Of a stretch of DNA of 64,000 nt, positions 17,431 to 49,533 are shown piece by piece. The notes below the pieces were generated by a model. The model searched no databases, was not told where the DNA came from, and worked only from the letters and a program-made list of their open reading frames with translations. The DNA lies in contig DATGHU010000044.1 of NCBI GenBank assembly GCA_035307765.1, positions 1 through 64,000 of the forward strand. Direction: 5' to 3'. This stretch comes from a bacterium (GTDB lineage: Bacteria; Sysuimicrobiota; Sysuimicrobiia; Sysuimicrobiales; Segetimicrobiaceae). Every line of letters begins with the position of its first letter. Position 1 is the first letter of the stretch. The translations under genes and the position numbers were made by a program.

Positions 17431-17569
17431 CGCGTTTGCAGGCGTTTGCAGAACGGGGATCCGGGAGGGCACCCTCTCGAGACAGTCTCTTCTGTGAGCC
17501 GTGTCCTGTGCGGTTTTCCGTGGTGGACCGTGCAGGACTCGAACCCGCGACGCCCGGGTTAAAAGCCCG
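17431..17569 (+). repeat. Putative attachment site attL: tRNA-Lys 3' fragment with downstream flank
   Basis: This 139-bp segment is repeated colinearly at 49395-49533. The first 20 bp (CGCGTTTGCAGGCGTTTGCA) and the last 65 bp (17505-17569) are identical except for one base; the middle is diverged at equal length. The last 46 bp or so are the 3' part of tRNA-Lys(TTT) on the minus strand, from the anticodon arm to CCA. The rest of the tRNA is absent, and one acceptor base is changed (GGTCC for GGCCC). This is the expected scar of a tyrosine-integrase element that enters the 3' end of a tRNA gene. Confidence 0.85.
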
Positions 17570-26692: not shown

Positions 26693-26852
26693 AATCTACA
26701 CCTATGCGTGGGGAAATCATGGTCCGGCTTGTGGGTTGGTTTCCCTAGTTGGGTATTTTCCCGGGATTCAACACTCGCTCGGGGCAGGGTGGATGCCGGA
26801 GGAGACAAGCCCAGACGCGGCATCTCACGCCTAATCTCCGACACACCACATG

Positions 26853-28910: not shown

Positions 28911-28970
28911 GGGTAGCAGTAGGAGGCCGCGTTGGGGATCATCCATGGCTTGGATGCAGTGCCTGGAGAG

Positions 28971-30507: not shown

Positions 30508-33500
30508 CTATTTACTGACATGGCGTCCGCCTATATCGCAAAGAAAGATCAATTTCCCATTCGCTTTCTTTGATCCAGCGTGCGCCACCACATCGACGTA
30601 CTCTTTCAGTTGGGTCGAGTAGACGGCCTCAAGTGCCTTTGTGTCTGCTGTCCCAGTGGCATCGGTCTTAAAGTCGAGAACGGTCACACCGCCGGTGTCT
30701 TCCAGGATCATATCGATGGCGCCCTCGATCGTCCCTTTTGGATCGGACTTCGCGAAAGGAACTTCTCGCCACAAACGACCAGAAACGGTGGCACGAACTG
30801 TATCCATAGCCAAGGCCGCCTGTACCAATTCAACCGCACGGCGGCGAATAGAGGCACCCAGGTCCTGCTGATCCGCGAAGTACCTGACGAAGCCCTCGAC
30901 CAAGTCTGCTCGGGAGGCCGGGAGATTCGCCAGGACGGCGTGAACCAGTGTCCCCAGTGCTCGCCCACCGGGTTCGGACTCGAGAGAGGCACCCTTGCGC
31001 TGCAGCGCTTTGAGGGCTTTGTGATCCGCTAGACCGGAAGGGTTCCGCACGGGATCTGCAGTGCCCGCTGCCCCGACGGTGACCTCGCGTGCGTGGAGCC
31101 AGGCCTGACGTGCCCGAGCCACCGCTTCCCCTTCGGGCGTGGGACCGTCCGCAAGGCTTAGCCGGATTGGTGGCGGGTCAGTTGGAACCTTGGGGATCTG
31201 CTCGCCATCGACCAACAACCATCCGTTGTCCGCCCTTCCGAACTTCGGAACTGCGGGGATGAGGAGGCAAAGATCCTCCTGTATGCTGCCCTTCCCAGGC
31301 TTTGGAAACACGGGCAGGACGAGGGCGTTCTTCGCTCGAGTCATGGCGACGTACAACACCCGAAGGCGCTCCGCGGCCTCGCGGTTCGCATGATGGACCT
31401 TCAGCGTCTCGTACTCGCACGTCCGGATCGGCCACTCCTCAACCTTGCCCACGAGGGCAGCGTATACGCTGCCTGTGTGTTGTACAAGCAGATGCTCGGC
31501 GCCGCCCCCAGGGCCGCGCCCCAGGTCAGGAATGACCACGATCGGGAACTCCAGTCCTTTGGCGGCGTGAATCGACATGATCCGCACGACGTTATCGCCC
31601 TCTTCGACCGTCGGCGATTCGGCCTCGTCCACCGCCTGTTCTTCCATGTCCTTCAACCAGTGGACGAACGCGCGGAACGTGAGAATCCCGCTCTCCTCGA
31701 GTGCCCGGGCCAGCGTCACCACCTTCGTGAGGTTGGCGGCTCGCTGCTCCCCCTGCGGCATGAGCAAGAATGTCGGAAGCGCTTGGGTGCGGGCGATGAC
31801 CATCTCCACCGTCTGCGGGACGCTCAGCTGCAACCTGGCCTCGTGTAGCTCGCGGAGGGCCGCATATGCGGCCTTGACACTTTCGGGACTCTGGACACTG
31901 GGGGACCGGTAGTCAAGAGCACCTCCCTGTCCCACAACAAAGTCATAGATTTCTCGGTCCGAGCAGCCGAAGATGGGCGACCGAAGCGCACCCCACACCG
32001 CCACGGGATCGGTCGGGTGCTCTACTGCGTGCAGGACATTGAGCAGCCACCCAACCTCCTCACGCTTGTAGAATGTGCGACTGCTCGTCACTCGGTAGGG
32101 AACACCGTAGCGCTTCAAAGCCTCCTCGTAGATAGGTACGTCACTCATCCCGCGAAAGAGCATCGCCACGTCTCCGTACCGGGAGGCTCGGCGGTCGCCT
32201 GCGACCCTCCACGTCTGGCCTTCGATGCTGTGGCGTAGGAACGCGGCGAGGACTTCTGCCTCTCTTTGACGGAGGGTGGCGGCGTCCACGTCCTCTCCAG
32301 CCGGCGGTCCCGGGTAGAGAAGCGTCAACGTAGATGAATCGTCGAACGATTTCGTTGCTGGGGCGGGGTGCAAGGCGACGTATTCCGGCTGATACGCCCC
32401 GTCGTCGGGCGACCGCATCCTCCCCTGGAAGGTTTCATTGACGGCTGTCAGGATCGGCTCGACCGACCGGAAGTTGGTGGTGACGTATAGGAGGACGCCC
32501 GAATTCATGAGAACCGCCTTCGCCCGCTGATACGTTTCGATGTCGGCGCGACGAAACGCATAGATGGATTGCTTGGGGTCGCCTACGATGAACAACTTCC
32601 CTGGCCGTAGCCGCACCTGATCCCATGACCGTGCCCGAGGGCCATCCTCGGCCAGGAAGAAGACGATCTCGGCCTGAAGCGGGTCCGTATCCTGGAACTC
32701 ATCGACTAGAATGGCGTCGAAGCGCTTTTGAAAGTACGCTCGCACGTCGGAGCGCGCGCGGAGGAGGTCGCGTGCGATCAACAGGAGGTCGTCGAAATCG
32801 AGGAGCCCTTCGCGTGCCTTTAGCGTTTGGTACTCAACGACGTAGCCACGGAGCCAGTTGACCGCCCCGGCAGCCAGGTAATGCGCGTGTGCGGCCTGCA
32901 GTTCTTCGAGCTTGTCCTGAAGCGGCTCAAGGCGCCGCCTAACCTCGACCAGCGCTCCTCGAGCCCAGTTCTGCTGATTCCCGCCTACCGTGAGCTTCAA
33001 GCCGCTCAGAATTCCACGGCGGACCTCAGCTGGGCCAAGCCGGGCAAGGACATCCAGACGCTGTCCTAGCCGTTCCAGCTGGGCCACCGCTTTGTCGGCA
33101 TGGTCCAAACAGTCAGTCCCGATCCTCGCGATGCAGGACCGAATCTTGGGCTCTGCCGAGGCGAGCCAGGGTATAGGATCCTGGGGAACCGGCCCACGAT
33201 CCAGGGCCTCACTCACCACATCCCGGTACCGCAGGACCGCATCCGCGAGGGCGCGCAGGGGCTTCAGCGAAATGCCGAACTCGATTACCTCGCGCAGCGC
33301 CCCGTGCTCGTTATCCTTCTGCCGCTCCAGCCAGCGGTCCCAGGCCTGCGTCCGCAGGAGGGACGCGGTCAGTTCGTCTGCAACCGTGAATGCGGGGTCC
33401 ACTCCGGCTTCGACTGGCCGCTCCCGAAGTAGGTCGGCTGCAAACGCGTGGATCGTTGAGACGGGGGCGATCTCGAGGTCCTCCAGCGCCGTCCGGAACC

Positions 33501-33768
33501 GGTCGGCCGCGTGGCTGGAGGCGGCCTCCAAGTGCGATTGGATCCGTTGCCGGATCCGGATCCGCAGCTCGGCGGCAGCTTTCTCCGTGAACGTGATCGC
33601 GACGATATCGCGCAGGCGAGCTTTCCCGGATTCCACGAGCGCCTCGATGCGATCGACCAGGAGGTGCGTCTTCCCGGTCCCGGCCCCGGCCTCGACGATA
33701 AAGGTCTGATCCAGCTCCGTCCGGACCCTCCGACGGGCCTTTGCGTCGGGCAGCATCCGTGCCGTCAT
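30508..33768 (-). CDS. addA: AddA-like UvrD-family helicase-nuclease
   Basis: A 1086-aa protein. The SF1 helicase motifs are in order: Walker A EAGAGTGKTH (26-35), DFDDLLLIARDLL, motif II ILVDEFQDTDP, FIVGDPKQSIYAFRRADI, motif V SIHAAKGLEFPIVVIPD and motif VI VLYVAMTRAKNALV. The C-terminal RecB-type nuclease has GTLVHAVL, GAIDMILED and VLDFKTD, with the catalytic D and K retained. With the AddB-like partner it should unwind and degrade double-stranded DNA ends. ATG 33768 overlaps the addB stop (ATGA). Last gene of a five-gene operon. It could be the housekeeping AddAB, but its place in the operon suggests joint work with the upstream genes. Confidence 0.9.
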   Translation of the reverse strand: MTARMLPDAKARRRVRTELDQTFIVEAGAGTGKTHLLVDRIEALVESGKARLRDIVAITFTEKAAAELRIRIRQRIQSHLEAASSHAADRFRTALEDLEIAPVSTIHAFAADLLRERPVEAGVDPAFTVADELTASLLRTQAWDRWLERQKDNEHGALREVIEFGISLKPLRALADAVLRYRDVVSEALDRGPVPQDPIPWLASAEPKIRSCIARIGTDCLDHADKAVAQLERLGQRLDVLARLGPAEVRRGILSGLKLTVGGNQQNWARGALVEVRRRLEPLQDKLEELQAAHAHYLAAGAVNWLRGYVVEYQTLKAREGLLDFDDLLLIARDLLRARSDVRAYFQKRFDAILVDEFQDTDPLQAEIVFFLAEDGPRARSWDQVRLRPGKLFIVGDPKQSIYAFRRADIETYQRAKAVLMNSGVLLYVTTNFRSVEPILTAVNETFQGRMRSPDDGAYQPEYVALHPAPATKSFDDSSTLTLLYPGPPAGEDVDAATLRQREAEVLAAFLRHSIEGQTWRVAGDRRASRYGDVAMLFRGMSDVPIYEEALKRYGVPYRVTSSRTFYKREEVGWLLNVLHAVEHPTDPVAVWGALRSPIFGCSDREIYDFVVGQGGALDYRSPSVQSPESVKAAYAALRELHEARLQLSVPQTVEMVIARTQALPTFLLMPQGEQRAANLTKVVTLARALEESGILTFRAFVHWLKDMEEQAVDEAESPTVEEGDNVVRIMSIHAAKGLEFPIVVIPDLGRGPGGGAEHLLVQHTGSVYAALVGKVEEWPIRTCEYETLKVHHANREAAERLRVLYVAMTRAKNALVLPVFPKPGKGSIQEDLCLLIPAVPKFGRADNGWLLVDGEQIPKVPTDPPPIRLSLADGPTPEGEAVARARQAWLHAREVTVGAAGTADPVRNPSGLADHKALKALQRKGASLESEPGGRALGTLVHAVLANLPASRADLVEGFVRYFADQQDLGASIRRRAVELVQAALAMDTVRATVSGRLWREVPFAKSDPKGTIEGAIDMILEDTGGVTVLDFKTDATGTADTKALEAVYSTQLKEYVDVVAHAGSKKANGKLIFLCDIGGRHVSK

Positions 33769-36700
33769 TCGATTTCCCACATTCTCGTGATGGCGGCGAT
33801 GGCTGGGTCGGCCCGTTTCCGTTCGGCGAGCCGGGCCCGCCCATGGCCGCAGGCTGACTGAAAGGAACACCACTTGCAGTTCTCTCCGCTCTTCCCGGGG
33901 TGCTGCGGGAACGTGCCTTCAGCAATCCCATCGGACATCGTCTTGAGCATGGTCGCGAACTCCGCAGATCGGCGGTCGAAGGCTTTGCGGGTGAAGCGGA
34001 CTTGTTTGAACCCGCCCTTCGCAGTCGCATAGTAGTAGAGGGCCTCGGTCGTCCGGGCCGCCACGCCGTTGTGGGCAAGCATCGCATCCGCCGCTTGGAG
34101 GTAGATCGGGAGCTGAAGGCTCTGGCCTCCTCGAAATCTGTTGTCCTTCTCCTCGTAGGCGGCTCCGGTCTTGTAGTCGATCACCCGCGCGCTCCCCGCC
34201 GGGCTCACGTCGATGCGGTCGACATAACCCGTCAGTCGAAGCGTCCCGCCATCGGTCGGGAGCTCCAGAGGGTGCGGCATCGACCCCGGAGGCGCCGTCG
34301 CCCACGAAGGCGTCGGGCCGAACCTGGCTTCGAAGTATGCGGGAACGTACCCAGTTTCATCGGTGCATTCGAATCCCACAAACCCTTCGAGGTCCGTCAG
34401 GATCCGGGCCTGTTCCACGTCCCACATGAACGGGTAACCCACGGCACCGCTCTTCTCGAACTCTTGGAATAGCTGAGCCGCGATCGCGTGCAGACGTTCC
34501 CGATATTCCTTGATGCATGAAGTGCGCATCGGCACGAGATCATCCTTCACCAGCCCGGAGAGAAACTGGTCGAGGATATCGTGGATGAGCGAGCCGCGGT
34601 CGAGTGGGCTGATCGTCTCCACCGCTTCCGGCTCATCGATCTCGAACACGCGGAGGATCCGCTCGCCGAAGAACTTGAACGGACACAGTCCGTAGGTCTC
34701 CATCTGGGTCGCCGCCATGGTCTGCGGCAGGAGGACGGGGATCCCCAGTACCCCGTCAAATTCCGTGAACCGGGGGCGCCCCCACCGACTCCCTTCGGCC
34801 CGTGTCCCGCGTGCCATAGCCGCGAACCCGGGAAGACCGTTCAGTGAGGCAGTCTCGCTAGAGGTTAGCGCGCGGGAGACCGTGGCCAAGTCCCATTCAC
34901 TCGAGTTCAGCGGGGCGTCGTCGCGGGCCAGTCGGCCAGCGGGGATCCGGTCGGTCAGGGTACCCAGCTCGTCATAGCCTGTCGGCTGACCCGTCACCGC
35001 CTCGGCCACCCGCAGCAGGTAATGGGACGGAACGCGGACTTGGCCGGTCGCTGCATCCAGCCGCGGGAACGTAAACACCACTTGCGCCTCGGCCGCCGCC
35101 AGCGCGTGCCGGAAGGAGAATCGCTCTTCGACGGCACGATCCGCCCGGACCGCGAGCGCCCTGCCATGTCGGGTGTTTAGGGCCTCCCGCTCCTGGTCGA
35201 GCAAAATGGGATCCTGTTTGGCGACGGGGGGGAACGACCGCTCGACCATCCCGGGGATGAGGACCAGCTTATAGGGCAACCCGGTGGCGCTGCTCAATGA
35301 CGAGACGACCACCCGTCCGGTTCGGTAAACATCGCTCGGCGGCAGCCGCTCGGCGAGCAGATCCTCAAGCAGTCTAGCAAAGTTGTCAAACGTGACCTCT
35401 TCGTCCGCCACGTTCCGGCGCGCCAGGACGGCCAGTGCCTTCACGACGCCGCGATCTTGGCCGGTCAGGGTGGCCACCGAGAGGAGGGCCCGAAGCAGGT
35501 CGCCCATCAACTCTCCGATCGCGCCGCGGGGCGGAATTCCCTCCAGTCGTTTGAGCAAGATGTTGATCACGTGCTCGAAGGCGCGGAGCGACTTGGCGTT
35601 CCGGTCGAGTTGGGCCAAGCGCGGATCATCCGGCCCTGCGGTCCCGCGTCGCAGGCGACCGACGCGAGACTCGACCCGCCGGCGCATGGCCGAGACCCGG
35701 CTCTTCCATTGCTCGCGTCCCCCCACGATTCCGGCCTCCCGGCTGTAGCGGTCCCAATCCGCGGGCGAAGCCTCGGGGGGTCCCCCAAGCAACTGAACTC
35801 GCAGAGGGGCGGACCCAAGAAACTCCATCACATCCGCCCGTGGGTAGTCGCCGCGCCGGATCCGGACCAACAGTTGGAGAAGACGCCCCGCCGGCGTATT
35901 GTTCATGGGAATCCCGTCGAGAAAGACGTGCGGGATCCCAGCCGCCGCAAACACGTCCCGGAGGGTCCGTTCGTAGACCCCGGGCTGACGGAGTAGGACG
36001 GCGACGTCGGAGAACGAGGCGCCGGGCGTCGCAGCATAAGCGAGGACGTGGCGAGCCACTTCCTGGATTTCCGGAGCCGCGCCGGGCGCGGAGACGATCC
36101 CGACGTCGCAAGAAACGGGCAAGCCCCCGGATCTGTCGTTGAAGACCTCGTGGGCCAGAGCCTTTGGGCCCGAGACGATCGGGGCACCGGGGCTCGCCGG
36201 CGTGGCAAACCCCTTCGACCTCAACCAATCGAGCAGTGGCTGCGTGTATCCACCGACATCCTCTGGGATAAATGCATACCCGGGACGGTCCGCCACACAC
36301 GCTTCAAAGAGGGTGCGCTCCAGGTGGTTAAGGTCGGAGAATCCGTAAAGACAAACAGCGAGCGCCGAACCTAGCGATGAGCTCGACCGGGCCGCTTGGG
36401 AGGCGATGGCCAAGCACTCGCTCGTGTCAAAGTAGCCTGCCTCCGCCTGCAGGCGTTCAACTTCGCGGTAGATCGCCGCGACTTCCTCGAGCTTCTTCGA
36501 GCGCATTGCCCCGGAGAACTCCTCGAGCCGATCGGGCGTGACGCCGGCCTTCTTGAGATCGGTCAGGGTGATAAGAACGGCGCGAGGGGTGCCGGGCGAT
36601 TCCCGAATGGGGGCGAAGTAGCCATCGGACGTCACCTTGGCGTTAATGGCCTTGCGCGCAATCAGGAACGCTCCAAGGGGCGACACAGGAATGCGCCCTG

Positions 36701-36941
36701 ATGCCACAAGGGCCTCGAGTCCAACAGATTCCGCGAAATCCGGAAAGGTCTGGAACCGCACATTGAAGCACACGCCATGACGTTGGGCCAACAGCCGCAT
36801 GAGGTGCCGACCGAGGACATGCGTGGGCACGAGCACAACGATGGAGCCTAGCGGATCGCGCCGGCGAATGGCGGCGACAGCCTCGGAGAACGCATCCTCG
36901 AGGTGGGGCTGGAAGGTACCGACGTAGTAAGTTTGCGTCAA
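33765..36941 (-). CDS. addB: AddB-like helicase-nuclease subunit with iron-sulfur nuclease domain
   Basis: A 1058-aa protein. The N-terminus is a degenerate helicase core (GSIVVLVPTHVLGRHLMRLL) as in AddB/RexB. The C-terminal PD-(D/E)XK domain shows RGSLIHDIL, LTGYVDRIDV and VIDYKTGAAYEEKDN, with catalytic D and K. Cys in MQMETYGLCPF-like context (ATQMETYGLCPFKFF) and CKWCSFQSACG supply the four Cys expected for the 4Fe-4S staple of AddB nucleases. ATG 36941 lies 16 bp after the SNF2-type gene. With AddA it would make a dual-nuclease end-processing machine. Confidence 0.9.
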   Translation of the reverse strand: MTQTYYVGTFQPHLEDAFSEAVAAIRRRDPLGSIVVLVPTHVLGRHLMRLLAQRHGVCFNVRFQTFPDFAESVGLEALVASGRIPVSPLGAFLIARKAINAKVTSDGYFAPIRESPGTPRAVLITLTDLKKAGVTPDRLEEFSGAMRSKKLEEVAAIYREVERLQAEAGYFDTSECLAIASQAARSSSSLGSALAVCLYGFSDLNHLERTLFEACVADRPGYAFIPEDVGGYTQPLLDWLRSKGFATPASPGAPIVSGPKALAHEVFNDRSGGLPVSCDVGIVSAPGAAPEIQEVARHVLAYAATPGASFSDVAVLLRQPGVYERTLRDVFAAAGIPHVFLDGIPMNNTPAGRLLQLLVRIRRGDYPRADVMEFLGSAPLRVQLLGGPPEASPADWDRYSREAGIVGGREQWKSRVSAMRRRVESRVGRLRRGTAGPDDPRLAQLDRNAKSLRAFEHVINILLKRLEGIPPRGAIGELMGDLLRALLSVATLTGQDRGVVKALAVLARRNVADEEVTFDNFARLLEDLLAERLPPSDVYRTGRVVVSSLSSATGLPYKLVLIPGMVERSFPPVAKQDPILLDQEREALNTRHGRALAVRADRAVEERFSFRHALAAAEAQVVFTFPRLDAATGQVRVPSHYLLRVAEAVTGQPTGYDELGTLTDRIPAGRLARDDAPLNSSEWDLATVSRALTSSETASLNGLPGFAAMARGTRAEGSRWGRPRFTEFDGVLGIPVLLPQTMAATQMETYGLCPFKFFGERILRVFEIDEPEAVETISPLDRGSLIHDILDQFLSGLVKDDLVPMRTSCIKEYRERLHAIAAQLFQEFEKSGAVGYPFMWDVEQARILTDLEGFVGFECTDETGYVPAYFEARFGPTPSWATAPPGSMPHPLELPTDGGTLRLTGYVDRIDVSPAGSARVIDYKTGAAYEEKDNRFRGGQSLQLPIYLQAADAMLAHNGVAARTTEALYYYATAKGGFKQVRFTRKAFDRRSAEFATMLKTMSDGIAEGTFPQHPGKSGENCKWCSFQSACGHGRARLAERKRADPAIAAITRMWEIE

Positions 36942-36957
36942 TATAGTGAGCCTGTCG

Positions 36958-39900
36958 CTAGATCTCTGGCGGACTCAGATCTATTCGTAGATTGCTCAGG
37001 GCCCGTGCAACTTCGGGTTCGGGCGAGCGAGACGTGAGATAGGCGAGCAAATCTTCCTGCCGCGGCTGGCCGAAGACCATGCGGTAAAGGGTCAGAGCCC
37101 GCCGGAGAGCAGCCAAACGGTTGAGATCCCGGCTCATCGCCAAGGCGGGGACGTGTCGTTCGATCTTTGCTCCACCGTCAATCTGGTACACCCAAAATGG
37201 CACGAGGTCCGAAACGCCCTCAGCGCGATCGCGGCTGCCCTGCTCAAATGCCGAATCCCAGGGATCGTTGCACCCTGTTGAGAGCGCTGAGGCCCCGTAA
37301 CGCAAAGCGAGGTTCCTGCGAACAGCATGGCCCTTGTACCGATGGATCCGGCCTTCGCGTTGCTCGAGGTCTACCGGATTGGAAGGGAGATTCCAGTGCA
37401 CAACTGCGTGGCAGTAGGGGTGGAAATCGAGGCCTTCCTGCCCGATAGATGTGGTGGCGACCACAAAGGGCCAAAAAGGCGAATTAAAGGCAGCTCGGAC
37501 CTGGTCCTTGCGTGTGACCTCGGCTCCGCCGTCTGCATCGTCATCTCCGAACCGCATGGCAAACCGGGCGCGCATGCCTTGGTCCTCGATCGCGATGGCG
37601 TGCGAATCATTGTTCACAACGATTTCGTCAACCCGCGTCGTCGATGCGCGCAGACCGAGCGCGAAGTCCATGGCGCCAGAAACGGCTGCGGACACCTCAT
37701 CGGGTTTTTTGTCGAAGAGGCCCAGCATCTCTCGCAGCATATGGGCAAACTCGTCGAGCGTCGCTTGAAGGCCGCCGTTCACACAGTAGTCCAGCACTCG
37801 GCGCCAGTAGGGCTCCTCGGGGTTCATTCCGCGAATCAACGCCATGACCTCAGGGAGGTTGAACAGGCTTCGGAACGCCCAGGCCACCTGTCCGGCGTGA
37901 TTCCGTAGCCAGTCTTCCGGAAACCGTGCCGGGCCTCCTGCGATGCGCGCGAGCGCGCGCATCGCGGCGACAGCCGGCCCCGCTAGCGCCATCTCGGCGA
38001 GGACGCTCACCAGATCATCAGGAGGGCGCCCTAGTGGCGGGCGGTCCGCAACAAGGTCTCTAGCCCGTTTCACGTGCTCAGCCCAAATCGTATCTTCGCT
38101 CTGGTCCCGACGCGATTCCCCGGCGCTCGACCAAATCCAGTCCAGATTGCCTTGCGAAAGCCACCTGCGCGCAGCGGCGGGTTCAGTCAGAACATCGAGC
38201 AGAATCGGTGCGGCCCAGTACCACGTTTCGTCCACCGGCCCCGTGCCGCCGAGGGTCGCCCCGATCGCGGGCAATAGCCCCTCCAGGCGGCTCCCGACCC
38301 ACTTGAGCATCTCCGAAATGAGCGGCGCCGCCCCGTCCGCGCCTCGTTCGCGGAAGAACTCGAGCGGGTCTCCCAACCGACCCAGCGCCATGCTCGGGTA
38401 GATGAGCCCCAGCACGGGCATCCCTGTGAGACGCCCTTCGCTGTCGCGCGCGAATCTGAGCAGCGGACTCCGGCGTCGCCGCGCCTCGACGGTGTTCTCC
38501 AGCACCGTATCAGCCCCCGAGGTCATCATCAAGCGCTCAGACTCGTAGCTCAGAATCGCCGCGATCACCTTGGGCGCCACCAGCCACGATGAGAACACTA
38601 ACCGTTTTGTGAAGCGCTCCAGCACCTGATCATCAAACGGCCCACCGAGCCGATAGTAAGGCAAGGAGGGCGGAATCCACAACAAACGCCACGCCCCATT
38701 CCTCACCGTCTCGGTCAACATGCCCCTCAGTCTCGCGTTGCCAGGATCGATTTCCCCATAGGCCCGGATGGCGGGCCAGGGCAGCAGGAGCGATCCTGCA
38801 CCCGAAAGCGCGGCCTCGAGCGCGCTGTGCTCGTTCGGATCTCCGACGGCCTCTTTTAACGCGCGCTTGAGATCATAGTTGTCCATGAAGTTCAAGAGGT
38901 AGGGCGCCGACTTCCAATACTCGAGGGTACCGTTCGTCTCGAGCAAGCGGGCGACCCTCTGCAACGCCACGAAGGCCTCGAGGTCCTGAGGCTCGAGGGT
39001 AACTCCCAGCATCGGGGCCTCAACGAGCATTCCGTTACGATCCTCGGAGGCGGCGAGCCGCTCGGTCCGTAGCATCACGCTTCGCAGATGGAACTCCAGT
39101 TGATGCTTGAGCTCCACGAGCCGGCCAGTCCCACCGCCGTCCAGCCTGAAGAGTTCACGGCGGTACTCCTTGAGGAGCCCCGCTAGCGCAGCTTTCTTGG
39201 TTTCGTCGCCAAGCAGAAACCCGAGGGTCCGTACAAAATCGTTATAGTGATCGTCCTCGCTCATCTCGGAGGAGGTTGTGTACATTCGGTAGGGGGTTGC
39301 CGACAGTAACAGGACGCGCGCGGTTGAAACGTCATCCGCGTACTCGAACAAACGACGGGCAAGCTGGCTCGCCTCATCGTCCCCGTCGAGCAAGTGCTTG
39401 AATCGCTGGAACTCGTCCAGGATGATGAGATCCGGCTGAAGCGCCTGAAGGCAGGTTGCGGCCAGGAGACTCCGCAACTCGCCAATTAGCCGGCTACGGT
39501 CGGTGGCGTCCTCTTGCGGGATGTTCTTCTTATCCTTGCTGAACCGGGTGCAGAGGTCATCAAACCGCGACCGCAGGTCGGGTTGGCCCTTCTGCTGATC
39601 GGAGGCGATTTGCCGCCCAACCGCGAGAACAAACTCCTCGGCCAGAGATTTATCGATCTCTCGGCTGTCGCGGAAATAGCGCACCCGGTCCCTGAAATTC
39701 CCAGTCTGGACGTGGCCCCGTAGGACGTTCAGTGGGCCTGTTCCGCGCAGATCCCAAGCCTCGCTGAGCAGCCAGTACAGCAGCGCGCGCTCTTCGGCCG
39801 TTCCCAAGTTCGACTTTAAGCTGAACGACGTGCCCGGCGTGAAGGACACGAAGTTCACCGAGTTGGTCTTCAAGTCTCGTAGGGTGATGGGGAGCAGCGT

Positions 39901-40221
39901 AATCCGTGAAGCTAAGGGGAGGTCCTCCTGGCCGGTCACGTTTAAGCGGTTAATGTTTTGCCGCGCGATTTCCGCGCTCGAGCAAATGTACACGATATCG
40001 ATACGGGGAACCCGCCCCCACAGATGGTCGATCGCCTTGGCGATCACGCCGCGCGCGACCAATGTCTTGCCCAGGCCGACCTCATCCGCCAACAGGAAGC
40101 GGCGGGGGGAGTCAACGTCGAGGAAGAGCCTGCGGAAGACATACTCGACCGACCGGCGCTGGAAATCCTTGAGGCCGCTGAGGACGGTGGGGACGTCAGG
40201 GCGTCGGGCCGGCGTACTCAT
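36958..40221 (-). CDS. Large SNF2/SF2-type helicase of a defence-like operon
   Basis: A 1087-aa protein. The N-terminal ATPase half has motif I ADEVGLGKT (45-53), motif Ia-like IVYICSSAEIARQN, motif II LIILDEFQRF and motif III LLLSATPYRMYT. The C-terminal half ends with TTSIGQEGLDFHPYCHAVVH and motif VI EQREGRIHRYKGH. Between them is a very long insertion of about 500 residues without recognised motifs. This layout is that of SF2 translocases in restriction and phage-defence systems rather than chromatin remodellers. The start overlaps the PLD gene stop by 26 bp. Probably the DNA-moving motor for the PLD-family and AddAB-like nucleases around it (inference). Confidence 0.9.
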   Translation of the reverse strand: MSTPARRPDVPTVLSGLKDFQRRSVEYVFRRLFLDVDSPRRFLLADEVGLGKTLVARGVIAKAIDHLWGRVPRIDIVYICSSAEIARQNINRLNVTGQEDLPLASRITLLPITLRDLKTNSVNFVSFTPGTSFSLKSNLGTAEERALLYWLLSEAWDLRGTGPLNVLRGHVQTGNFRDRVRYFRDSREIDKSLAEEFVLAVGRQIASDQQKGQPDLRSRFDDLCTRFSKDKKNIPQEDATDRSRLIGELRSLLAATCLQALQPDLIILDEFQRFKHLLDGDDEASQLARRLFEYADDVSTARVLLLSATPYRMYTTSSEMSEDDHYNDFVRTLGFLLGDETKKAALAGLLKEYRRELFRLDGGGTGRLVELKHQLEFHLRSVMLRTERLAASEDRNGMLVEAPMLGVTLEPQDLEAFVALQRVARLLETNGTLEYWKSAPYLLNFMDNYDLKRALKEAVGDPNEHSALEAALSGAGSLLLPWPAIRAYGEIDPGNARLRGMLTETVRNGAWRLLWIPPSLPYYRLGGPFDDQVLERFTKRLVFSSWLVAPKVIAAILSYESERLMMTSGADTVLENTVEARRRRSPLLRFARDSEGRLTGMPVLGLIYPSMALGRLGDPLEFFRERGADGAAPLISEMLKWVGSRLEGLLPAIGATLGGTGPVDETWYWAAPILLDVLTEPAAARRWLSQGNLDWIWSSAGESRRDQSEDTIWAEHVKRARDLVADRPPLGRPPDDLVSVLAEMALAGPAVAAMRALARIAGGPARFPEDWLRNHAGQVAWAFRSLFNLPEVMALIRGMNPEEPYWRRVLDYCVNGGLQATLDEFAHMLREMLGLFDKKPDEVSAAVSGAMDFALGLRASTTRVDEIVVNNDSHAIAIEDQGMRARFAMRFGDDDADGGAEVTRKDQVRAAFNSPFWPFVVATTSIGQEGLDFHPYCHAVVHWNLPSNPVDLEQREGRIHRYKGHAVRRNLALRYGASALSTGCNDPWDSAFEQGSRDRAEGVSDLVPFWVYQIDGGAKIERHVPALAMSRDLNRLAALRRALTLYRMVFGQPRQEDLLAYLTSRSPEPEVARALSNLRIDLSPPEI

Positions 40222-42073
40222 CCTTCAGCCTCTGCCGCGCAGTCCAGATCGGTTGCCAGACGGAGTTAAACCCGGGGGGGAGGAGGGCCTCCCCCTCGGG
40301 CGATTTCCGCAGATCGTCTATGAGGCGAGCGACTTCGTCCAGCTTTGCCGGGTTGCGGTCGAGCGTGCTGACTAGGACCTCGAAAAGTGCCGACCCATCC
40401 TCGGGCCCGAACAAGCCCTTAGTCCCCGGACCCTGACCGTTTCCGGAGAACAGCGCGTCTCTCGCCTCAATCTCGTCTTCCGAAAGAAGGAGAAAAAGGA
40501 AGCGCAGGACGCGGTCAGGGTCCCGGAGCAGTGAACGGAGGATTCTGTCCCGCCGATCCGCCGGGGCCCCTTCGATGGGCAGGTTCAGGACGAATCGGAC
40601 GGCTCCCGGCACGCCATCGACCGTCCCGGCGATCTCGAAGGCCAGGAACGACGTTAGAGCTTCAAACGACAGCAGCCCGAAGTCCGCCAGGAGGCCGGTC
40701 CCAGCGGACAGCGATAACGCAGCGACGTCCTCCTTGAGCGTGATGGGCCAGCATCGGATGTCAAGGTCAGACGGCAGGTTCACCGCTTCCGCACCCCGGC
40801 CGAAGAGTCCGAGCCGGATCTGCTCTGGGCCATCGCCTGGGTCAACCCGAAGATACAGGGGCGCCGAGGCTACGGCCCGCCGCGCCAGCTCGAGGTGGCG
40901 TTCAAGTTGTTCCGAGATCGGCTCGGCGCCGGGCGCCTGATTCCCTGGCTCGAAGAGCTGGAGAAGACCGGCAAAGGGTACTGATTCATCCCCTCCGAGT
41001 ACCGCATCCACGCCGCACCGGCTCTTGGCCCCAACGAGTTCAATGAGAAACTCCACGTTCGCGCCAAAGGCCCGCTCGGTGGCATTGGCCGAACCGACCC
41101 ACACCCGGGCATCCCATCCCGCGTCGGCGACGTACAACTTCGCGTGAAGACCCGAGAGGGAACGCTCGCCTCCCGCATTGGTCTCTTCGTCGATCTCGTT
41201 GGGAGCATCGGCCGAAGGATTCATGAAGAATACGCGCTCGAACTGCCCGAGCGCGGCAGGATCATCCAGCGCCTCCAGGCTCTCCAACCTGGAGACAAGG
41301 ACGTGCTTGTCACCGTCCTTCGCGAGGCGAGAGAGAAGTCGTGGCGACAAAAAGGGTGAAATCACGAGCATGCGGTCGATGCGGCCCACAAACGGCCAGC
41401 GGCGCGCACCATCGATGCCAAGCGGCCAGAAGGTTATGGCCGCGAACCCGTCTGGGAGATCGAAGCGGACGCGACGCACCTCGTCCTGGAGGCGGTCGAC
41501 ATCTCGCTGAATCCTGTCGGGAATGGGCCGACGGATGGCCAAGCCCGGCAACGCCGCAAAGAAATCACCGAGCGGGTGGTTGTCGGCGAACGCGTTCCGC
41601 CGTTGTGCGAGTTCGCCGTTCAGGACCAAGATTGTGTCCCATGAGCGATCAAAGGTGAGGTTTCTCGTCAGACATACTAACCGGTAGAATACCCGCCCAT
41701 CCGGGGCGGTGAAGCGAAGGGCCCAGATTTTTGGATGGAACACACCTTGGGGATTCGGCGGCACGACCTGTACGATGGAATCTTCAAGATACCCGAACAG
41801 CGTCTCATGCCGCTTAGGGATCGCGATGCCACCGGCATGGCAGAAGATGCTGACATGCTCCGCGTGACGCCGCAGGGCCTCAAGCATTGCCAGCGGGTCC
41901 GCGACCGGGCGTCCCTCCTCATCCCCCAAATCGAAGAGGGTGAACGCCAGAGGTGCGGTCAATGCGGCAAGCAGATCGAGAGAGTAGGTGGTGCCGATAG
42001 CGCAGTCGAGCGTGTGGCCTTCCGGAGGGCGTAACGCCTCCAGCAACAGGCGCCGGTCCTGCGGATCAAGCAT
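40196..42073 (-). CDS. Phospholipase D-family protein with two HxK motifs
   Basis: A 625-aa protein. Motif 1 is GVFHPKIWALRF followed by LTRNLTFDRSWD (H-x-K then N). Motif 2 is LSGLHAKLYVAD followed by WVGSANATERAFGANVEF (H-x-K, then N and E). Two such motifs make one active site in PLD-fold nucleases and lipases; beside DNA helicases the nuclease role is more likely. The C-terminal 250 residues are unrecognised. ATG 42073 is chosen because it overlaps the DUF6361 stop by 8 bp; an upstream frame to 42169 has no support. Similar helicase plus PLD pairs occur in DISARM and other restriction-like systems. Confidence 0.88.
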   Translation of the reverse strand: MLDPQDRRLLLEALRPPEGHTLDCAIGTTYSLDLLAALTAPLAFTLFDLGDEEGRPVADPLAMLEALRRHAEHVSIFCHAGGIAIPKRHETLFGYLEDSIVQVVPPNPQGVFHPKIWALRFTAPDGRVFYRLVCLTRNLTFDRSWDTILVLNGELAQRRNAFADNHPLGDFFAALPGLAIRRPIPDRIQRDVDRLQDEVRRVRFDLPDGFAAITFWPLGIDGARRWPFVGRIDRMLVISPFLSPRLLSRLAKDGDKHVLVSRLESLEALDDPAALGQFERVFFMNPSADAPNEIDEETNAGGERSLSGLHAKLYVADAGWDARVWVGSANATERAFGANVEFLIELVGAKSRCGVDAVLGGDESVPFAGLLQLFEPGNQAPGAEPISEQLERHLELARRAVASAPLYLRVDPGDGPEQIRLGLFGRGAEAVNLPSDLDIRCWPITLKEDVAALSLSAGTGLLADFGLLSFEALTSFLAFEIAGTVDGVPGAVRFVLNLPIEGAPADRRDRILRSLLRDPDRVLRFLFLLLSEDEIEARDALFSGNGQGPGTKGLFGPEDGSALFEVLVSTLDRNPAKLDEVARLIDDLRKSPEGEALLPPGFNSVWQPIWTARQRLKDEYAGPTP

Positions 42074-43298
42074 CCGGCTCCTCGCGCTCCACGGCCCGGA
42101 GAATGTCGAGCACCATGGTCTGGGCGATGGGCCAACGATACGAAAGCTGCGCAGTACCAGCTTCGCCATTCCAGAGTTCCCGCGCGCGGAAATTATCCAG
42201 CCGAGCCAGCGCTCGCTTCAAGACGACCTCTCGGTCGTGAATCAATTGACGGGCGCGCTGATTCGCCCCGATGCGGGGGGCCTCTGGGGACAATGCCATC
42301 CCTAACCACGTGTCGATGAACGATTTCGTCGTGATGGGGATGTGCCCGCTGCCCGAGTGAGCTATCCCCCAGAACCCGCGCTGGTCCCATCTCGTCAGGG
42401 CATCCTTACGAGCTTCTAGCAGAGCCGCCCAGGATCGCAACCGCTCTTGGTAATCTGCAATCGTCTCACGATGCCCGCCCAGCTCCGCCAACATGAGGTT
42501 ATAGAGGAGGGCCGTACCCCAGATCGACTCGGAAAAGTTCCGCGCGTGTGCCAGCTGATCTCGGATGCGGACGGGGAATTCCCCAACCTGGGGGTGCTCC
42601 CAAGGAAAGTCCACTGGCTGCCAGATGCGTCCGTGGTCGACGAGAAACGCAAGCAACGTCCCCTGAAGGCACGAGAGAATGCGTTCACGAAGGTACTCCG
42701 CCTCCGGCCGTTTGAGGTTAAACGATGCGACTGTCGGAAACCCACCTGGCGCAGATGGAATTCCTAAATGCCAGTTGGGTCGAACCGCACCCTCAGCCCG
42801 CTCGCCATCATCATCGCGGGTCCCGTTGGAAGTCGTTCCGGGATACCGCTCGATCAACCGCTGGTACTGTTCCTGAGATCCGGGAAACAGCCGGATGCCC
42901 CAGACCCCCAGCCCCTGCCAGTAGATATTGCTCGCTAACCGCTTGAGCGATGACCGCGCCTGAATGCCGATTGTTCCATCGTGGTCGGTAGATTTGGCCA
43001 GGACATCGATGAGTGCGGTTTCCTCACGCCGTGCCTTCGCAGCAATCTCGCGCGAGGAGATATGGCGCCGTTCCAAGTCTAAGTACATCCACGGGATGAA
43101 CAGGAAATACCGGGCTCGACGTTGGAGGGTGCTCGTTCCCGGGAAAAAGATGTCAGCGAACGCATCACGCACGGTCCCAATACCCAATTCGTCGCGGGTA
43201 TCTCGCTCAGCAAACACACCGATCACGTCGAGCATCTTCCGGCGCTCGTGCTCCGAGTAGTCCAACCAACCTATAAAGGATGCCGCTAAGTCGGACAC
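42066..43298 (-). CDS. DUF6361 family protein
   Basis: A 410-aa protein opening with FIGWLDYSEHERRKMLDVIG, ELGIGTVRDAFADIFFPGTS and RRARYFLFIPWMYLDLERR, the pattern I recognise as DUF6361. No catalytic motif of a known enzyme is visible. The family has no described biochemical role that I know of. GTG 43298 lies 5 nt after GGGGA; TTG 43301 is an alternative. First gene of the five-gene operon, so it could be a sensor or adaptor that recruits the PLD and helicase proteins (inference from position only). Confidence 0.82.
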   Translation of the reverse strand: MSDLAASFIGWLDYSEHERRKMLDVIGVFAERDTRDELGIGTVRDAFADIFFPGTSTLQRRARYFLFIPWMYLDLERRHISSREIAAKARREETALIDVLAKSTDHDGTIGIQARSSLKRLASNIYWQGLGVWGIRLFPGSQEQYQRLIERYPGTTSNGTRDDDGERAEGAVRPNWHLGIPSAPGGFPTVASFNLKRPEAEYLRERILSCLQGTLLAFLVDHGRIWQPVDFPWEHPQVGEFPVRIRDQLAHARNFSESIWGTALLYNLMLAELGGHRETIADYQERLRSWAALLEARKDALTRWDQRGFWGIAHSGSGHIPITTKSFIDTWLGMALSPEAPRIGANQRARQLIHDREVVLKRALARLDNFRARELWNGEAGTAQLSYRWPIAQTMVLDILRAVEREEPDA

Positions 43299-43839: not shown

Positions 43840-44323
43840 TCAGGCCCTGTGACGAAGGATGAGTTTGATCCGCCGCTCCTTCCAAAGCTTCTGCGTCAGC
43901 TTCCGCGTTTTATCGTAGCACTTCTTGGCGGGCGAACCTTGTGTAGGGATGCCGCATCGAGAAGATTAGCGATTGCCCGAGGGACCGCTGTAGGCCTCCG
44001 GGTAGCGAGTCGGCGCCACGTGGTTTCCGCAACTTGGCGAATTTCAGTTCGATCAGCACACGCCCAATTCTCTCGTGACAGACAAAGATATCGTCGCTAG
44101 CATAGCGCCCCAGAATTGCTACGTGCTGAAGGCTCTTGGACTTGCCCCAGTTGGGGTTCCCATGATAGTAGAGCACATCATAGAGATCGGCGTCGAGGAG
44201 ATTCAGCTTCGAACGCACGTAGCGCTGGACATAAGGAACAAGCGCTTTCTCATGGGCCGCTTCGCCCTTGATGCGCTCAGGTAAAGGTGCCCTCTCAATG
44301 ACGCGAGCGAGGCCGAGGGCCAC
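43840..44323 (-). pseudogene. PD-(D/E)XK-like nuclease, frameshifted near its C-terminus
   Basis: Minus-strand reading gives AHEKALVPYVQRYVRSKLNL, DLYDVLYYHGNPNWGKSKSL, VCHERIGRVLIELKFAK and QRSLGQSLIFSMRHPYT. This is a short nuclease-like family seen near integrases, with the E-x-K of a PD-(D/E)XK core in IELKFAK. Near 43920 the frame shifts: the expected end (KTRKLTQKLWKERRIKLILR) is in the next frame, stopping at 43840. So the gene is a recent pseudogene or carries an assembly indel. Its 5' end runs head-on into the helicase/primase gene, overlapping about 26 bp, which looks like a rearrangement junction. Confidence 0.65.
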
Positions 44324-46085
44324 CGCGTACGCTACGGTCGGAGTTGGGGACCATCGAGAGACCTGGGCGGTAAAATCGCTCGGATTCCGGCTCTGGCTGA
44401 GGCGGGGTTACTACCGCGAGTATCAGACGGCACCGGGGAGCCAAGCCATAGTGGACGCTGTGGGCACGCTCGAGGCCCGGGCGTGGGTGGATGGCCCCGA
44501 ACGCCTCGTGTACACGCGCGTCGGGGAGCACGGCGGCGCCGTTTACGTGGACCTCGTGAACGGAGGGTGGGAGACCGTCGAGATCACATCGACAGACTGG
44601 CGCGTCGTTCCCGACCCACCGGTAATGTTCCGCAGGGCACGGGGCATGAGAGCCCTCGCGACCCCCGTCCCCGGCGGCAGTCTGAACGCCTTACGCCAAT
44701 TCGTCAACGTGGCCGACGATCGCAATTGGATGTTGATCGTGGGGTGGCTCCTGGGGGCGGCGTGGCCAAGCGGCCCGTACCCGATCCTGGTCCTCCACGG
44801 GGAGCAGGGGTCAGCCAAATCCACCACCGCCCGCGTGCTGCGCGCCCTCCTCGACCCGAACGCGGTCCCGCTCCGGAGTGAATCCCGCGAGGACCGCGAC
44901 CTGATGATCGCCGCAACGAACAGTTGGATCGTCAATCTGGACAACCTGTCCCGCCTCTCTGGGCGGATGTCCGACGCGCTGTGCCGCCTGGCTACCGGCG
45001 GCGGGTTCGCCACTCGCGAGCTTTACACTGACGCCGAGGAAGCTTTGTTCGAGGCGCAACGGCCGGTCATCCTCAACGGGATCGAAGAGCTGGCGACCCG
45101 GAGCGACCTGCTGGACCGCTCGATTATCGTGTACCTCCCTACCATCCCGGACGAACGTCGGAGGGCCGAGACGGAGTTCTGGCGCGAGTTCGAGGCGGCC
45201 CGGCCCTCGATCCAGGGGGCGTTGTACGATGCGGTTTCCGCCACCCTGCGGGCACTCCCAGGGGTGGCGCTCGAAGCAATGCCCCGAATGGCCGACTTCG
45301 CTTGCCGCGTGGTGGCGGCTGAGCCGGCCCTCGGATGGCCGACAGGTGCGTTCCTCGCCGCGTACGCAGAGAACCGGGAAGCGGCAAACGAGCTCCCGCT
45401 CGAGGCGTCCCCGGTGGCGGAGGCGATGCGGACCTTCGCCGAACAGCAGAGCGAGTGGGCGGGGACGGCGACCGAGCTCCTCGAGAGGCTCCAGAAACTC
45501 GTCGACGAGGCCGTCACCCGCCAGAAGGGGTGGCCCAAGGCCGCTCACGCCCTCTCCAACACCCTTGGCCGCCTGGCCCCGAACCTCCGCGCGGTCGGCG
45601 TGAGCGTGGCGTTCTCCCGGGCAGCCCGCAGGCGGTCGATCACCGTGCGGAAGATCGCGGAAGAGAGCGTCACGAGCGTCACCCCAGCCATGGCGGCCCA
45701 AACGCCCGTTGCCCGCGATGACGATCGAAACGGAGCCGTGACGAGGGGGGAGGCGGGCGTGACGCCGCCCACACCTGGACAGTCACCGCCCCGGAAGCCG
45801 CGGAGTGACGCTCGTGACGATAATGACGCTTCCTTGCCGCTGTTCACTAATCGGGATATCCCCGAGGCTTCGTGCGAAGATCCGCAGCAGGCGAGGCCCT
45901 GCCACTGGTGCAAGGGCACGCGATACTGGCGGTCTCGGAACAGCTCTACGTTGATCTGCGCTATTTGCCATCCGCCCGCGCGTGCCAGCCTCGTGGCGGA
46001 GTGGGTCGATGTATCGGTTAAGGGCATGCCGGCTCAGGGTGGATCCGACGTGCCGACGGGAGAGCAAGATGACGAGGGATGCTAG
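44298..46085 (+). CDS. Phage/plasmid-type helicase-primase fragment (D5-like ATPase)
   Basis: A 595-aa protein. Walker A is GEQGSAKST (168-176), followed by IVNLDNLSRLSGRMSDALCR and FATRELYTDAEEALFEAQRP, the core of a family of phage/integrative-element ATPases. The N-terminus starts directly in a conserved segment (YATVGVGDHRETWAVKSLGF), so an upstream part, perhaps a primase-polymerase domain, is missing. The C-terminal part is a low-complexity linker (TSVTPAMAAQTPVARDDDR...) and a zinc ribbon CHWC...CAIC. ATG 44298 is chosen; ATG 44271 is possible. It overlaps the excisionase-like gene by 17 bp. Likely replication helicase of the integrated element. Confidence 0.85.
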   Translation: MTRARPRATAYATVGVGDHRETWAVKSLGFRLWLRRGYYREYQTAPGSQAIVDAVGTLEARAWVDGPERLVYTRVGEHGGAVYVDLVNGGWETVEITSTDWRVVPDPPVMFRRARGMRALATPVPGGSLNALRQFVNVADDRNWMLIVGWLLGAAWPSGPYPILVLHGEQGSAKSTTARVLRALLDPNAVPLRSESREDRDLMIAATNSWIVNLDNLSRLSGRMSDALCRLATGGGFATRELYTDAEEALFEAQRPVILNGIEELATRSDLLDRSIIVYLPTIPDERRRAETEFWREFEAARPSIQGALYDAVSATLRALPGVALEAMPRMADFACRVVAAEPALGWPTGAFLAAYAENREAANELPLEASPVAEAMRTFAEQQSEWAGTATELLERLQKLVDEAVTRQKGWPKAAHALSNTLGRLAPNLRAVGVSVAFSRAARRRSITVRKIAEESVTSVTPAMAAQTPVARDDDRNGAVTRGEAGVTPPTPGQSPPRKPRSDARDDNDASLPLFTNRDIPEASCEDPQQARPCHWCKGTRYWRSRNSSTLICAICHPPARASLVAEWVDVSVKGMPAQGGSDVPTGEQDDEGC

Positions 46086-46543: not shown

Positions 46544-47674
46544 GTGAGGGGCCACATCCGCAAACGCGGAAACTCTTGGGCCGTGGTCGTGTACCTCGGC
46601 CAGGACCCGGCGACCGGCAGGGCTCGGCGGAAGTGGTACACGTACCCGACCCGGGGGGAGGCGCAGGCCCAGCTCTCCCACATCCTGACCCAGCTCCACG
46701 GCGGCGGGGCTTTGCCCTCAACGAAGCTCCGGACCGGGGAGTACCTGGAGAAGTGGCTGCACGACTACGCAGGGGGCGCCGTCGCGCCCACCACGTTCGC
46801 GCGGTACCAGGAAATCGTGAGCCTGCACTTGACGTCCGCCCTCGGGTTCATTCCGTTGCAGAAGCTCTCGCCCCAGGCGATCCAGGGCTACTTTACGGCG
46901 AAACTTGCGTCCGGTCTCTCGTCGACGACCGTGCGCCACCACGCGACGCTCCTTCACGGGGCGCTGCGACACGCGGTGAAGTGGGGGCTGCTGGCCAGGA
47001 ACCCCGCGGACATGGTGGACCCGCCGCGCCGATGCCGCTCGGAGATCCGGGTGCTGGACGAGGAGCAGGTGCGATTGTTCCTCGCGGAAGCAAGGAGATC
47101 GTCAGTGCACTACCGTCTATACTTGGCCGCCCTCACGACCGGGATGCGGCAAGGCGAACTCCTCGGGTTGCGATGGAGGGATGTGGATCTAAGCCTCGGC
47201 GTAGCATCGGTCCAGCAAACGTTCTACCGCCTGGGGAAGCGGATGCTCTTCAAGGAGCCCAAGACCGCGACCGCCCGGCGCACCGTCGCCCTGCTCTCGG
47301 TCCTGGTGCAGGAGCTCCTGAGCCTCCGGGGCGAGCAGCGCGTACGTCACGGTGCGCTCGGCGATGCCTACAAGGACCGCGATCTCGTTTTCTGCCAGCC
47401 CGACGGACGCCCGCTCCACGCAAACAATATCGCCCGACGAGACCTCAGGCGCGTGCTCAAGAAGGCCAAGTTGCCCACCATTCGGTTCCACGACCTCCGC
47501 CACTGCCATGCCACCCTTTTGCTCCGCCAGGGCATCCACCCGAAGGTGGTCCAAGAGCGGCTCGGTCACAGTTCACCCGCGTTTACGCTGCACGTGTACA
47601 GTCACGTTCTGCCCGGGATGCAAGAGGAGGTTGTGAGGCGCCTGGATCAGGCACTCCGCGAAAAGCCAGAGTGA
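46544..47674 (+). CDS. Tyrosine site-specific integrase
   Basis: A 376-aa phage-type integrase. N-terminal arm-binding (AP2-like) part about 1-60, SAM-like core-binding domain about 62-155, catalytic domain after 165. Catalytic residues: Arg202 in GMRQGELLGLRW, His316 and Arg319 in HDLRH, His342 in GHSS, Tyr352 in HVYSHV. GTG 46544. It lies 1.8 kb from the intact tRNA-Lys and the 139-bp direct repeat, the likely target. The full set of catalytic residues suggests the element may still be able to move. Confidence 0.95.
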   Translation: MRGHIRKRGNSWAVVVYLGQDPATGRARRKWYTYPTRGEAQAQLSHILTQLHGGGALPSTKLRTGEYLEKWLHDYAGGAVAPTTFARYQEIVSLHLTSALGFIPLQKLSPQAIQGYFTAKLASGLSSTTVRHHATLLHGALRHAVKWGLLARNPADMVDPPRRCRSEIRVLDEEQVRLFLAEARRSSVHYRLYLAALTTGMRQGELLGLRWRDVDLSLGVASVQQTFYRLGKRMLFKEPKTATARRTVALLSVLVQELLSLRGEQRVRHGALGDAYKDRDLVFCQPDGRPLHANNIARRDLRRVLKKAKLPTIRFHDLRHCHATLLLRQGIHPKVVQERLGHSSPAFTLHVYSHVLPGMQEEVVRRLDQALREKPE

Positions 47675-49394: not shown

Positions 49395-49533
49395 CGCGTT
49401 TGCAGGCGTTTGCAAAACAGGCTGCTCGGAGGACCCCTCTCGGGGGGACAACCTTCTGGAAGCCGCGTCCTGTGCGGTTTTCCGTGGTGGGCCGTGCAGG
49501 ACTCGAACCCGCGACGCCCGGGTTAAAAGCCCG
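49395..49533 (+). repeat. Putative attachment site attR overlapping the intact tRNA-Lys
   Basis: Colinear 139-bp repeat of 17431-17569. Its last 46 bp form the 3' part of the complete tRNA gene (anticodon stem to acceptor). The 19 bp beyond the CCA end that also match (CCTGTGCGGTTTTCCG region) extend identity past the tRNA. Because the tRNA 5' end lies to the right, the integrated element extends leftward from here. Confidence 0.85.

What the first reader, a model, noticed from the sequence alone, without database searches (positions are those of the whole stretch)
30508..43298. Five-gene DUF6361-PLD-SNF2-AddB-AddA operon, a candidate undescribed defence system
Sequence shows five minus-strand genes joined by overlaps of 8, 26 and 4 bp and one 16-bp gap: a DUF6361 protein, a PLD-fold protein with two HxK motifs, a 1087-aa SF2 translocase with a 500-residue insertion, and AddB- and AddA-like proteins each with an intact PD-(D/E)XK nuclease. 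Known: helicase plus PLD pairs occur in DISARM and other anti-phage systems; AddAB degrades DNA ends. Inference: DUF6361, PLD and SNF2 recognise or cut foreign DNA, and AddAB destroys the ends. The position on a mobile island with other nucleases fits defence. I know no named system with this set.
Basis: partly seen in the sequence, partly recalled or inferred. Interest (0 to 1): 0.88.

Follow-up and report, generated by a model that had tools for sequence, protein, structure and literature searches.

The report
Azaca anti-phage operon with AddAB nuclease
The first three of these five genes are a known but mechanistically unsolved anti-phage system called Azaca, here in one operon with a two-gene DNA-end-shredding machine (AddAB) that has been joined to Azaca and to other bacterial defence systems several separate times, suggesting a shared DNA-destruction add-on.

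Summary
In detail: five same-strand genes, 30508-43298, with the stated overlaps and intact motifs. The reading as an undescribed system is only partly right. PADLOC identifies genes 1-3 as full-length ZacA, ZacB and ZacC (E 1e-127, 9e-182, 0), i.e. Azaca, a named anti-phage system of unknown mechanism. What is not in the standard definition is the AddB-AddA pair. It recurs: AddB-AddA directly precedes ZacABC in a Chloroflexota MAG, a Pseudomonadota genome and alphaproteobacterial plasmids, and lies on the opposite strand near ZacABC in two more loci; the window alone has ZacABC-AddB-AddA. These come from at least four AddA lineages, and on plasmids AddBA and ZacABC have re-paired independently. 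Related AddBA also sits beside Shango, BREX, methylase-helicase and ubiquitin-like modules. Most Azaca loci lack it, and same-genus relatives carry a 66% identical AddAB away from Azaca. The operon lies on a ~32-kb island (tRNA-Lys att repeats, tyrosine integrase) and ZacA is absent from 42 related genomes. Best reading: Azaca plus an accessory AddAB helicase-nuclease; ZacABC engages foreign DNA, AddAB destroys the ends (inferred). New variant of a known kind.

The parts
42066..43298 (-). ZacA (DUF6361), 410 aa, GTG start
   Evidence: PADLOC ZacA PDLC03828 E 1.1e-127, residues 8-405 of 411 against 3-395/396; Pfam DUF6361 1.2e-62
40196..42073 (-). ZacB, PLD-fold protein, 625 aa, two H-x-K...N active-site halves
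   Evidence: PADLOC ZacB E 8.5e-182; H113/K115/N138 and H310/K312/N330 invariant in 56 homologues; fold matches Tdp1 then SauUSI
36958..40221 (-). ZacC, RapA/SNF2-like SF2 translocase, 1087 aa, with a large insertion between the RecA-like lobes
   Evidence: PADLOC ZacC 1175 bits, E 0, 10-1084 against 6-1016/1019; motifs conserved; RapA is the nearest solved chain
33765..36941 (-). AddB-like subunit with PD-(D/E)XK nuclease and four cysteines
   Evidence: PDDEXK_1 8e-37, ADDB_N 1.9e-8; TIGR02773 95 bits, cutoff 904; motifs
30508..33768 (-). AddA-like SF1A helicase with C-terminal PD-(D/E)XK nuclease, 1086 aa
   Evidence: UvrD 1e-56, UvrD_C, PDDEXK_1; TIGR02785 328 bits, cutoff 708; motifs
46544..47674 (+). 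Tyrosine integrase of the island, 376 aa
   Evidence: Phage_integrase 4.5e-26, Phage_int_SAM_3, Arm-DNA-bind
44268..46085 (+). Probable replication ATPase/primase-helicase of the island (VapE-like, weak)
   Evidence: AAA_5 and VapE-like below cutoff; by-eye Walker A GEQGSAKST
49453..49533 (.). Attachment site overlapping the 3' half of tRNA-Lys (tRNA 49485-49560, minus strand)
   Evidence: 81-bp direct repeat, 95% identical to 17489-17569; tRNA
17489..17569 (.). Second attachment site (duplicated tRNA-Lys 3' half)

Best explanation
The operon is an Azaca anti-phage system (ZacA-ZacB-ZacC) co-expressed with an accessory AddB-AddA helicase-nuclease, on an integrative island. Proposed mechanism: ZacC, a RapA/SNF2-like duplex-DNA translocase, with ZacA as adaptor or recogniser, engages invading DNA; ZacB, a PLD-superfamily enzyme with two HxK...N half-sites in one chain (the arrangement of Tdp1), cuts the DNA or clears blocked ends; AddAB loads on the resulting free ends, unwinds and degrades the DNA. 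Shown here: identity of ZacABC, intact motifs, operon structure, mobility, recurrent independent linkage to AddBA. Inferred: every enzymatic step, the order of action, and that AddAB contributes to defence rather than only to host repair.
For: ZacABC full-length matches. Azaca is listed among anti-phage systems with a PLD domain, citing Millman et al. 2022 (PMC10952713), among defence systems with an SF1/SF2 helicase, ZacC (PMC12278908), and as of unknown mechanism (PMC10482375). AddB-AddA adjacent to ZacABC on the same strand in L002, L060, L078-L081, L165-L167 and, with a divergent AddBA, L150; opposite strand nearby in L151/L176 and L177. The AddAB label needs at least 4 changes on the ZacC tree, all forced by starred branches; Zac-linked AddAs fall in separate lineages. 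Module exchange: Niveispirillum-Mesorhizobium AddA 84% but ZacC 45%; Niveispirillum-Bradyrhizobium ZacC 84% but AddA 69%. Related AddBA next to Shango SngABC (same annotated gene order), BREX-1, multiubiquitin-E1, methylase-helicase. Precedent: Druantia III-Zorya II synergy needs RecBCD (PMC13192584).
Against: Most Azaca loci have no AddAB: of 46 surveyed loci with at least 6.5 kb upstream only 11 had an AddA in the fetched stretch, and most of the 11 are alphaproteobacterial plasmid loci, so AddAB is not required for Azaca. The closest relatives of the window AddAB (66-71%) stand alone beside metabolic genes in same-genus genomes. In this genome it is the only AddAB-type pair, so it may serve repair. 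No activity data. Tdp1 likeness rests on a model of mean pLDDT 73 with TM 0.28-0.41 and no sequence support.
Confidence: 0.6

Rival explanations
1. Co-location without coupling: ZacABC is a complete Azaca, and AddAB is a general DNA-end-repair enzyme of this lineage that happens to lie downstream and serves the host or the island.
For: 66% identical AddAB stands alone behind an iron-permease-like gene in same-genus relatives; sole AddAB-type pair in the genome; most Azaca loci lack AddAB.
Against: 16-bp and 4-bp junctions on one strand; repeated independent linkage with direct adjacency in distant lineages and two gene orders; module exchange on plasmids. The window AddAB lies within the att-bounded island, not in a conserved chromosomal position.
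Confidence: 0.27
2. Guard or licensing model: AddAB is bait or sentinel. Phage end-protection proteins that block RecBCD/AddAB alter its activity, and that state activates or licenses Azaca.
For: Precedent: Gabija acts on DNA from which phage end-binding proteins exclude RecBCD (PMC12407980). AddBA recurs beside mechanistically different systems, as expected of a shared hub.
Against: No direct evidence; intact nuclease motifs in both subunits fit an effector at least as well.
Confidence: 0.1
3. One reading: an undescribed five-gene system in which all five proteins are obligatory.
For: The five-gene set is recurrent.
Against: ZacABC is a named three-gene system and occurs without AddAB in most loci; AddBA occurs without Zac beside other systems.
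Confidence: 0.03

Closest known systems
Azaca (ZacA-ZacB-ZacC; Millman et al. 2022, cited via PMC10952713)
   Same: All three proteins match PADLOC's models over essentially full length, in order, with overlapping genes.
   Different: AddB and AddA follow in the same operon; PADLOC 2.0.0 shows no Zac model for them.
AddAB / RexAB helicase-nuclease
   Same: SF1A helicase with C-terminal PD-(D/E)XK; partner with PD-(D/E)XK and cysteine cluster; gene order addB-addA.
   Different: Far below the NCBIfam equivalog cutoffs (328 of 708; 95 of 904 bits); accessory and island-borne rather than a conserved locus.
DISARM (DrmC PLD, DrmD SNF2 helicase)
   Same: A PLD-fold protein and an SNF2-like helicase; weak DrmC and DrmD matches.
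   Different: No DrmA, DrmB or methylase in the operon; matches far below family cutoffs.
Shango (SngABC) with AddBA, Sulfitobacter p3SUD7
   Same: A TerB-ATPase-helicase defence operon directly followed by AddB-AddA, the same kind of coupling.
   Different: Different defence core; the plasmid AddA is only about 31% identical to the window's in its helicase region.
Gabija (GajA-GajB)
   Same: UvrD-type helicase with a nuclease in defence.
   Different: No GajA/OLD protein here; GajB matches reflect only the shared UvrD core.

Membership tests
Azaca | ZacA (DUF6361) full length | tested here: met
   PDLC03828 E 1.1e-127, positions 3-395/396
Azaca | ZacB PLD-fold protein full length | tested here: met
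   PDLC03829 E 8.5e-182, positions 1-583/586; both HxK motifs intact
Azaca | ZacC helicase full length | tested here: met
   PDLC03830 1175 bits, positions 6-1016/1019
Azaca | Contiguous ZacA-ZacB-ZacC gene order | tested here: met
   Overlaps of 8 and 26 bp; same order in nearly all homologous loci
Azaca | Protects against phage | not testable with these tools
   No wet-lab data for this locus
AddAB | AddA: SF1A helicase with C-terminal PD-(D/E)XK; AddB: PD-(D/E)XK with cysteine cluster | tested here: met
AddAB | NCBIfam AddA/AddB equivalog score cutoffs | tested here: not met
   328.5 against 707.65 and 95 against 903.7 bits: AddAB-like, not filed as canonical AddAB
AddAB | Chi-regulated end resection feeding recombination | not testable with these tools
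   -
DISARM | DrmA, DrmB and a DNA methyltransferase | tested here: not met
   None among the five proteins or the neighbours scanned
DISARM | DrmC/DrmD matches at curated cutoffs | tested here: not met
   DrmC 22 of 133 bits; DrmD 62.5 of 610 bits
Gabija | GajA OLD-type ATPase-nuclease beside the UvrD helicase | tested here: not met
   No OLD/TOPRIM match in the operon

The most novel reading that the evidence does not exclude
AddB-AddA is a promiscuous, mobile defence co-module: one interchangeable DNA-end helicase-nuclease repeatedly recruited by helicase-centred systems (Azaca, Shango, BREX, ubiquitin-like, methylase-helicase) to complete destruction of, or to license, their DNA targets. 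The window is the variant in which Azaca carries it downstream.
Probability: 0.45. Interest if true: 0.72.

Novelty: new variant of a known kind. Interest (0 to 1): 0.5.

Why it matters
Azaca has no published mechanism in the papers found. Repeated independent recruitment of AddAB to it suggests that Azaca leaves or needs DNA ends, which is directly testable. If one AddBA module serves many systems, it would explain how different bacterial immune systems share a common DNA-destruction step, in line with the recently reported RecBCD dependence of Druantia-Zorya synergy.

Tried and rejected
ZacD/ZacE models in PADLOC: the next accession, PDLC03831, is BovA. Papers naming ZacA-C: only unrelated hits; Millman 2022 is not held; YprA and BREX surveys do not mention DUF6361 or AddAB. 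Viral-contig scans for ZacA: nothing; one phage record with a 29% match. ZacA fold: model pLDDT 63, no PDB match with E below 0.001, so no fold claim. ZacB by sequence: only PLDc_2 and SauUSI-type matches; Tdp1 likeness is by fold only. DISARM, Gabija and 'entirely new system' rejected (see membership test). The first AddA tree had two rows translated in the wrong frame and is superseded. Clostridium L007 has a ~200-residue nuclease-domain AddA remnant just upstream of ZacA next to transposase-like sequence; not counted as a case.

Full report
OBSERVATION. The five minus-strand genes exist with the junctions stated: overlaps of 8 and 26 bp, a 16-bp gap and a 4-bp overlap. Domains and catalytic motifs are as described: DUF6361; a PLD-fold protein with two HxK motifs; an SF2 translocase with its two motor lobes separated by a large insertion; AddB- and AddA-like proteins each with an intact PD-(D/E)XK motif.

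IDENTITY OF GENES 1-3. PADLOC-DB matches them to ZacA (E 1.1e-127), ZacB (8.5e-182) and ZacC (E 0, 1175 bits), each over nearly the whole model. That ZacA-ZacB-ZacC make up Azaca is my own knowledge for ZacA and ZacB; PMC12278908 names ZacC as the Azaca helicase. The original paper is not in the library, but PMC10952713 lists Azaca with its PLD-like domain and cites Millman et al. 2022, and PMC10482375 and PMC12926258 list Azaca among systems of unknown mechanism.

ADDAB. The last two genes resemble AddB and AddA but score far below the NCBIfam equivalog cutoffs, and PADLOC has no specific model for them. In the window's genome they are the only AddAB-type pair found; other helicase-nucleases are a PcrA-PD-(D/E)XK fusion next to a Rad50-like gene (C50) and a TM0106/IGHMBP2-type protein (C34). 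Across 43 genomes of the phylum, ZacA is present only in the window genome. AddA of this type is 66-71% identical in two same-genus genomes, 36-39% in two same-family genomes, and not found in others, including a 97% complete same-genus genome (G033, best hit below 50 bits). In the relatives AddB-AddA follows an iron-permease-like gene and lies among metabolic genes, without ZacABC (those gene names are by eye from the translations). The genes flanking the G030 AddAB map to C34 and C40 of the window genome, and the C40 stretch holds no AddAB. Thus the pair is accessory in this lineage.

RECURRENCE. AddB-AddA immediately precedes ZacABC on the same strand in a Chloroflexota MAG (L002) and in alphaproteobacterial plasmids of Bradyrhizobium, Niveispirillum, Mesorhizobium, Rhizobium, Agrobacterium and Shinella. 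A more divergent AddBA precedes ZacABC in a Pseudomonadota genome (L150). AddB-AddA plus a RadD-like helicase converges on a divergent ZacABC in G1029, and AddBA is divergently oriented from a DUF6361-PLD-hypothetical gene set in Sphingomonas NIC1. Of 62 Zac loci, 46 have at least 6.5 kb upstream; 11 of these show an AddA. This is not a simple frequency estimate, since several of the plasmid loci are close relatives. On a ZacC tree of 53 rows the AddAB label needs at least four changes, all forced by starred branches. The window's AddA groups with the stand-alone G030 AddA, apart from L002, L150 and the plasmid AddAs. Identities go both ways: window-L002 have ZacC 56% and AddA 32%; Niveispirillum-Mesorhizobium have ZacC 45% and AddA 84%; Niveispirillum-G1029 AddA is 93% although their ZacCs lie far apart on the tree. 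So AddBA and ZacABC have been joined repeatedly and re-paired. That is the strongest argument for a functional tie.

PROMISCUITY OF ADDBA. The plasmid-type AddBA (60 plasmid records with an AddB match) also lies beside Shango SngA-SngB-SngC, confirmed by PADLOC for Sulfitobacter and with the same annotated gene order in Paracoccus and Methylorubrum; BREX-1; methylase-DEAD helicase; ThiF-JAB; multiubiquitin-ThiF-DUF6527; and an AAA-helicase pair with AbiV nearby.

MOBILITY. An 81-bp direct repeat, 95% identical, copies the 3' half of tRNA-Lys (49453-49533) to 17489-17569. Between them lie a tyrosine integrase at 46544-47674, a VapE-like ATPase, a PDC-S18-like candidate defence gene and the operon. 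This is the anatomy of a ~32-kb integrative island.

MECHANISM. ZacC is RapA/DrmD/DpdE-like, a class that translocates on duplex DNA (established knowledge of SNF2/RapA proteins). ZacB has H113-x-K115...N138 and H310-x-K312...N330 invariant in 56 homologues. The residue in the place of the usual acid after the first HxK is arginine (54/56), and after the second it is E/D in 44/56. Its model's best folds are Tdp1 (E 4e-6 to 2e-5, probability 1.0, TM 0.28-0.41), then SauUSI. A two-half-site, HKN-type PLD enzyme could cut DNA or clear 3'-blocked ends; this is a suggestion, not a finding. AddAB then would degrade the ends. RecBCD dependence of other systems gives precedent (PMC13192584; PMC12407980). 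ZacA remains a helical protein without a detectable relative of solved structure.

CONFIDENCE BY STEP (my judgement). Genes 1-3 are Azaca: 0.97. Island-borne and horizontally acquired: 0.9. AddAB functionally coupled to Azaca here: about 0.65. End-degradation effector as against guard or repair: about 0.5 given coupling. Tdp1-like chemistry of ZacB: about 0.3.

VERDICT. A known system in a recurrent, apparently unmodelled five-gene form. The wider pattern, one AddBA module shared by several defence systems, is the part worth following.

Noticed in passing
window 17489-17569 and 49453-49533: 81-bp tRNA-Lys direct repeats (95%) bounding a ~32-kb island that also carries ABC-transporter, metallo-beta-lactamase-fold, SDR and enolase-like genes besides the defence operon.
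   Followed up: partly
window 48238-49263 (-): 341-aa protein with weak DUF5655 and a match to PADLOC phage-defence candidate PDC-S18 (E 8e-9), at the tRNA end of the island: a possible second defence gene.
   Followed up: no
window 16562-17054, 26845-27136, 28965-29177: Diverged non-coding repeats (families D1, D3, D4, D7, D8, 62-92% identical) about 10-12 kb apart inside and just outside the island; origin unknown.
   Followed up: no
L162:9630-15450 (Mesorhizobium), also L165-L167, L184: UvrD-type protein with an N-terminal ImmA/IrrE-like stretch (by eye), then multiubiquitin, ThiF E1 and DUF6527, repeatedly just upstream of AddB-AddA: a possible separate ubiquitin-like defence module.
   Followed up: partly
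L151:15605-18946, L178:16069-19404, L179:16062-19400: A ~1112-aa ResIII/RadD-like helicase, 85-86% identical in the three loci, follows AddB-AddA, giving an AddB-AddA-helicase trio beside Azaca, BREX-1 and Shango.
   Followed up: partly
L128, L129 (Planctomycetota): ZacC coding sequence appears interrupted or shifted, or separated from ZacB, with an opposite-strand ORF at the gap; could be insertions or decayed copies.
   Followed up: no
phage record MT835621, 13075-14256: A ZacA relative (29% identity) in an unannotated human-gut phage record.
   Followed up: no
L032:5526-12093 (own genome, contig C50): A PcrA-PD-(D/E)XK fusion next to a Rad50-like protein; AddA-query hits of similar size occur across the phylum: possibly its housekeeping end-resection enzyme.
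   Followed up: partly
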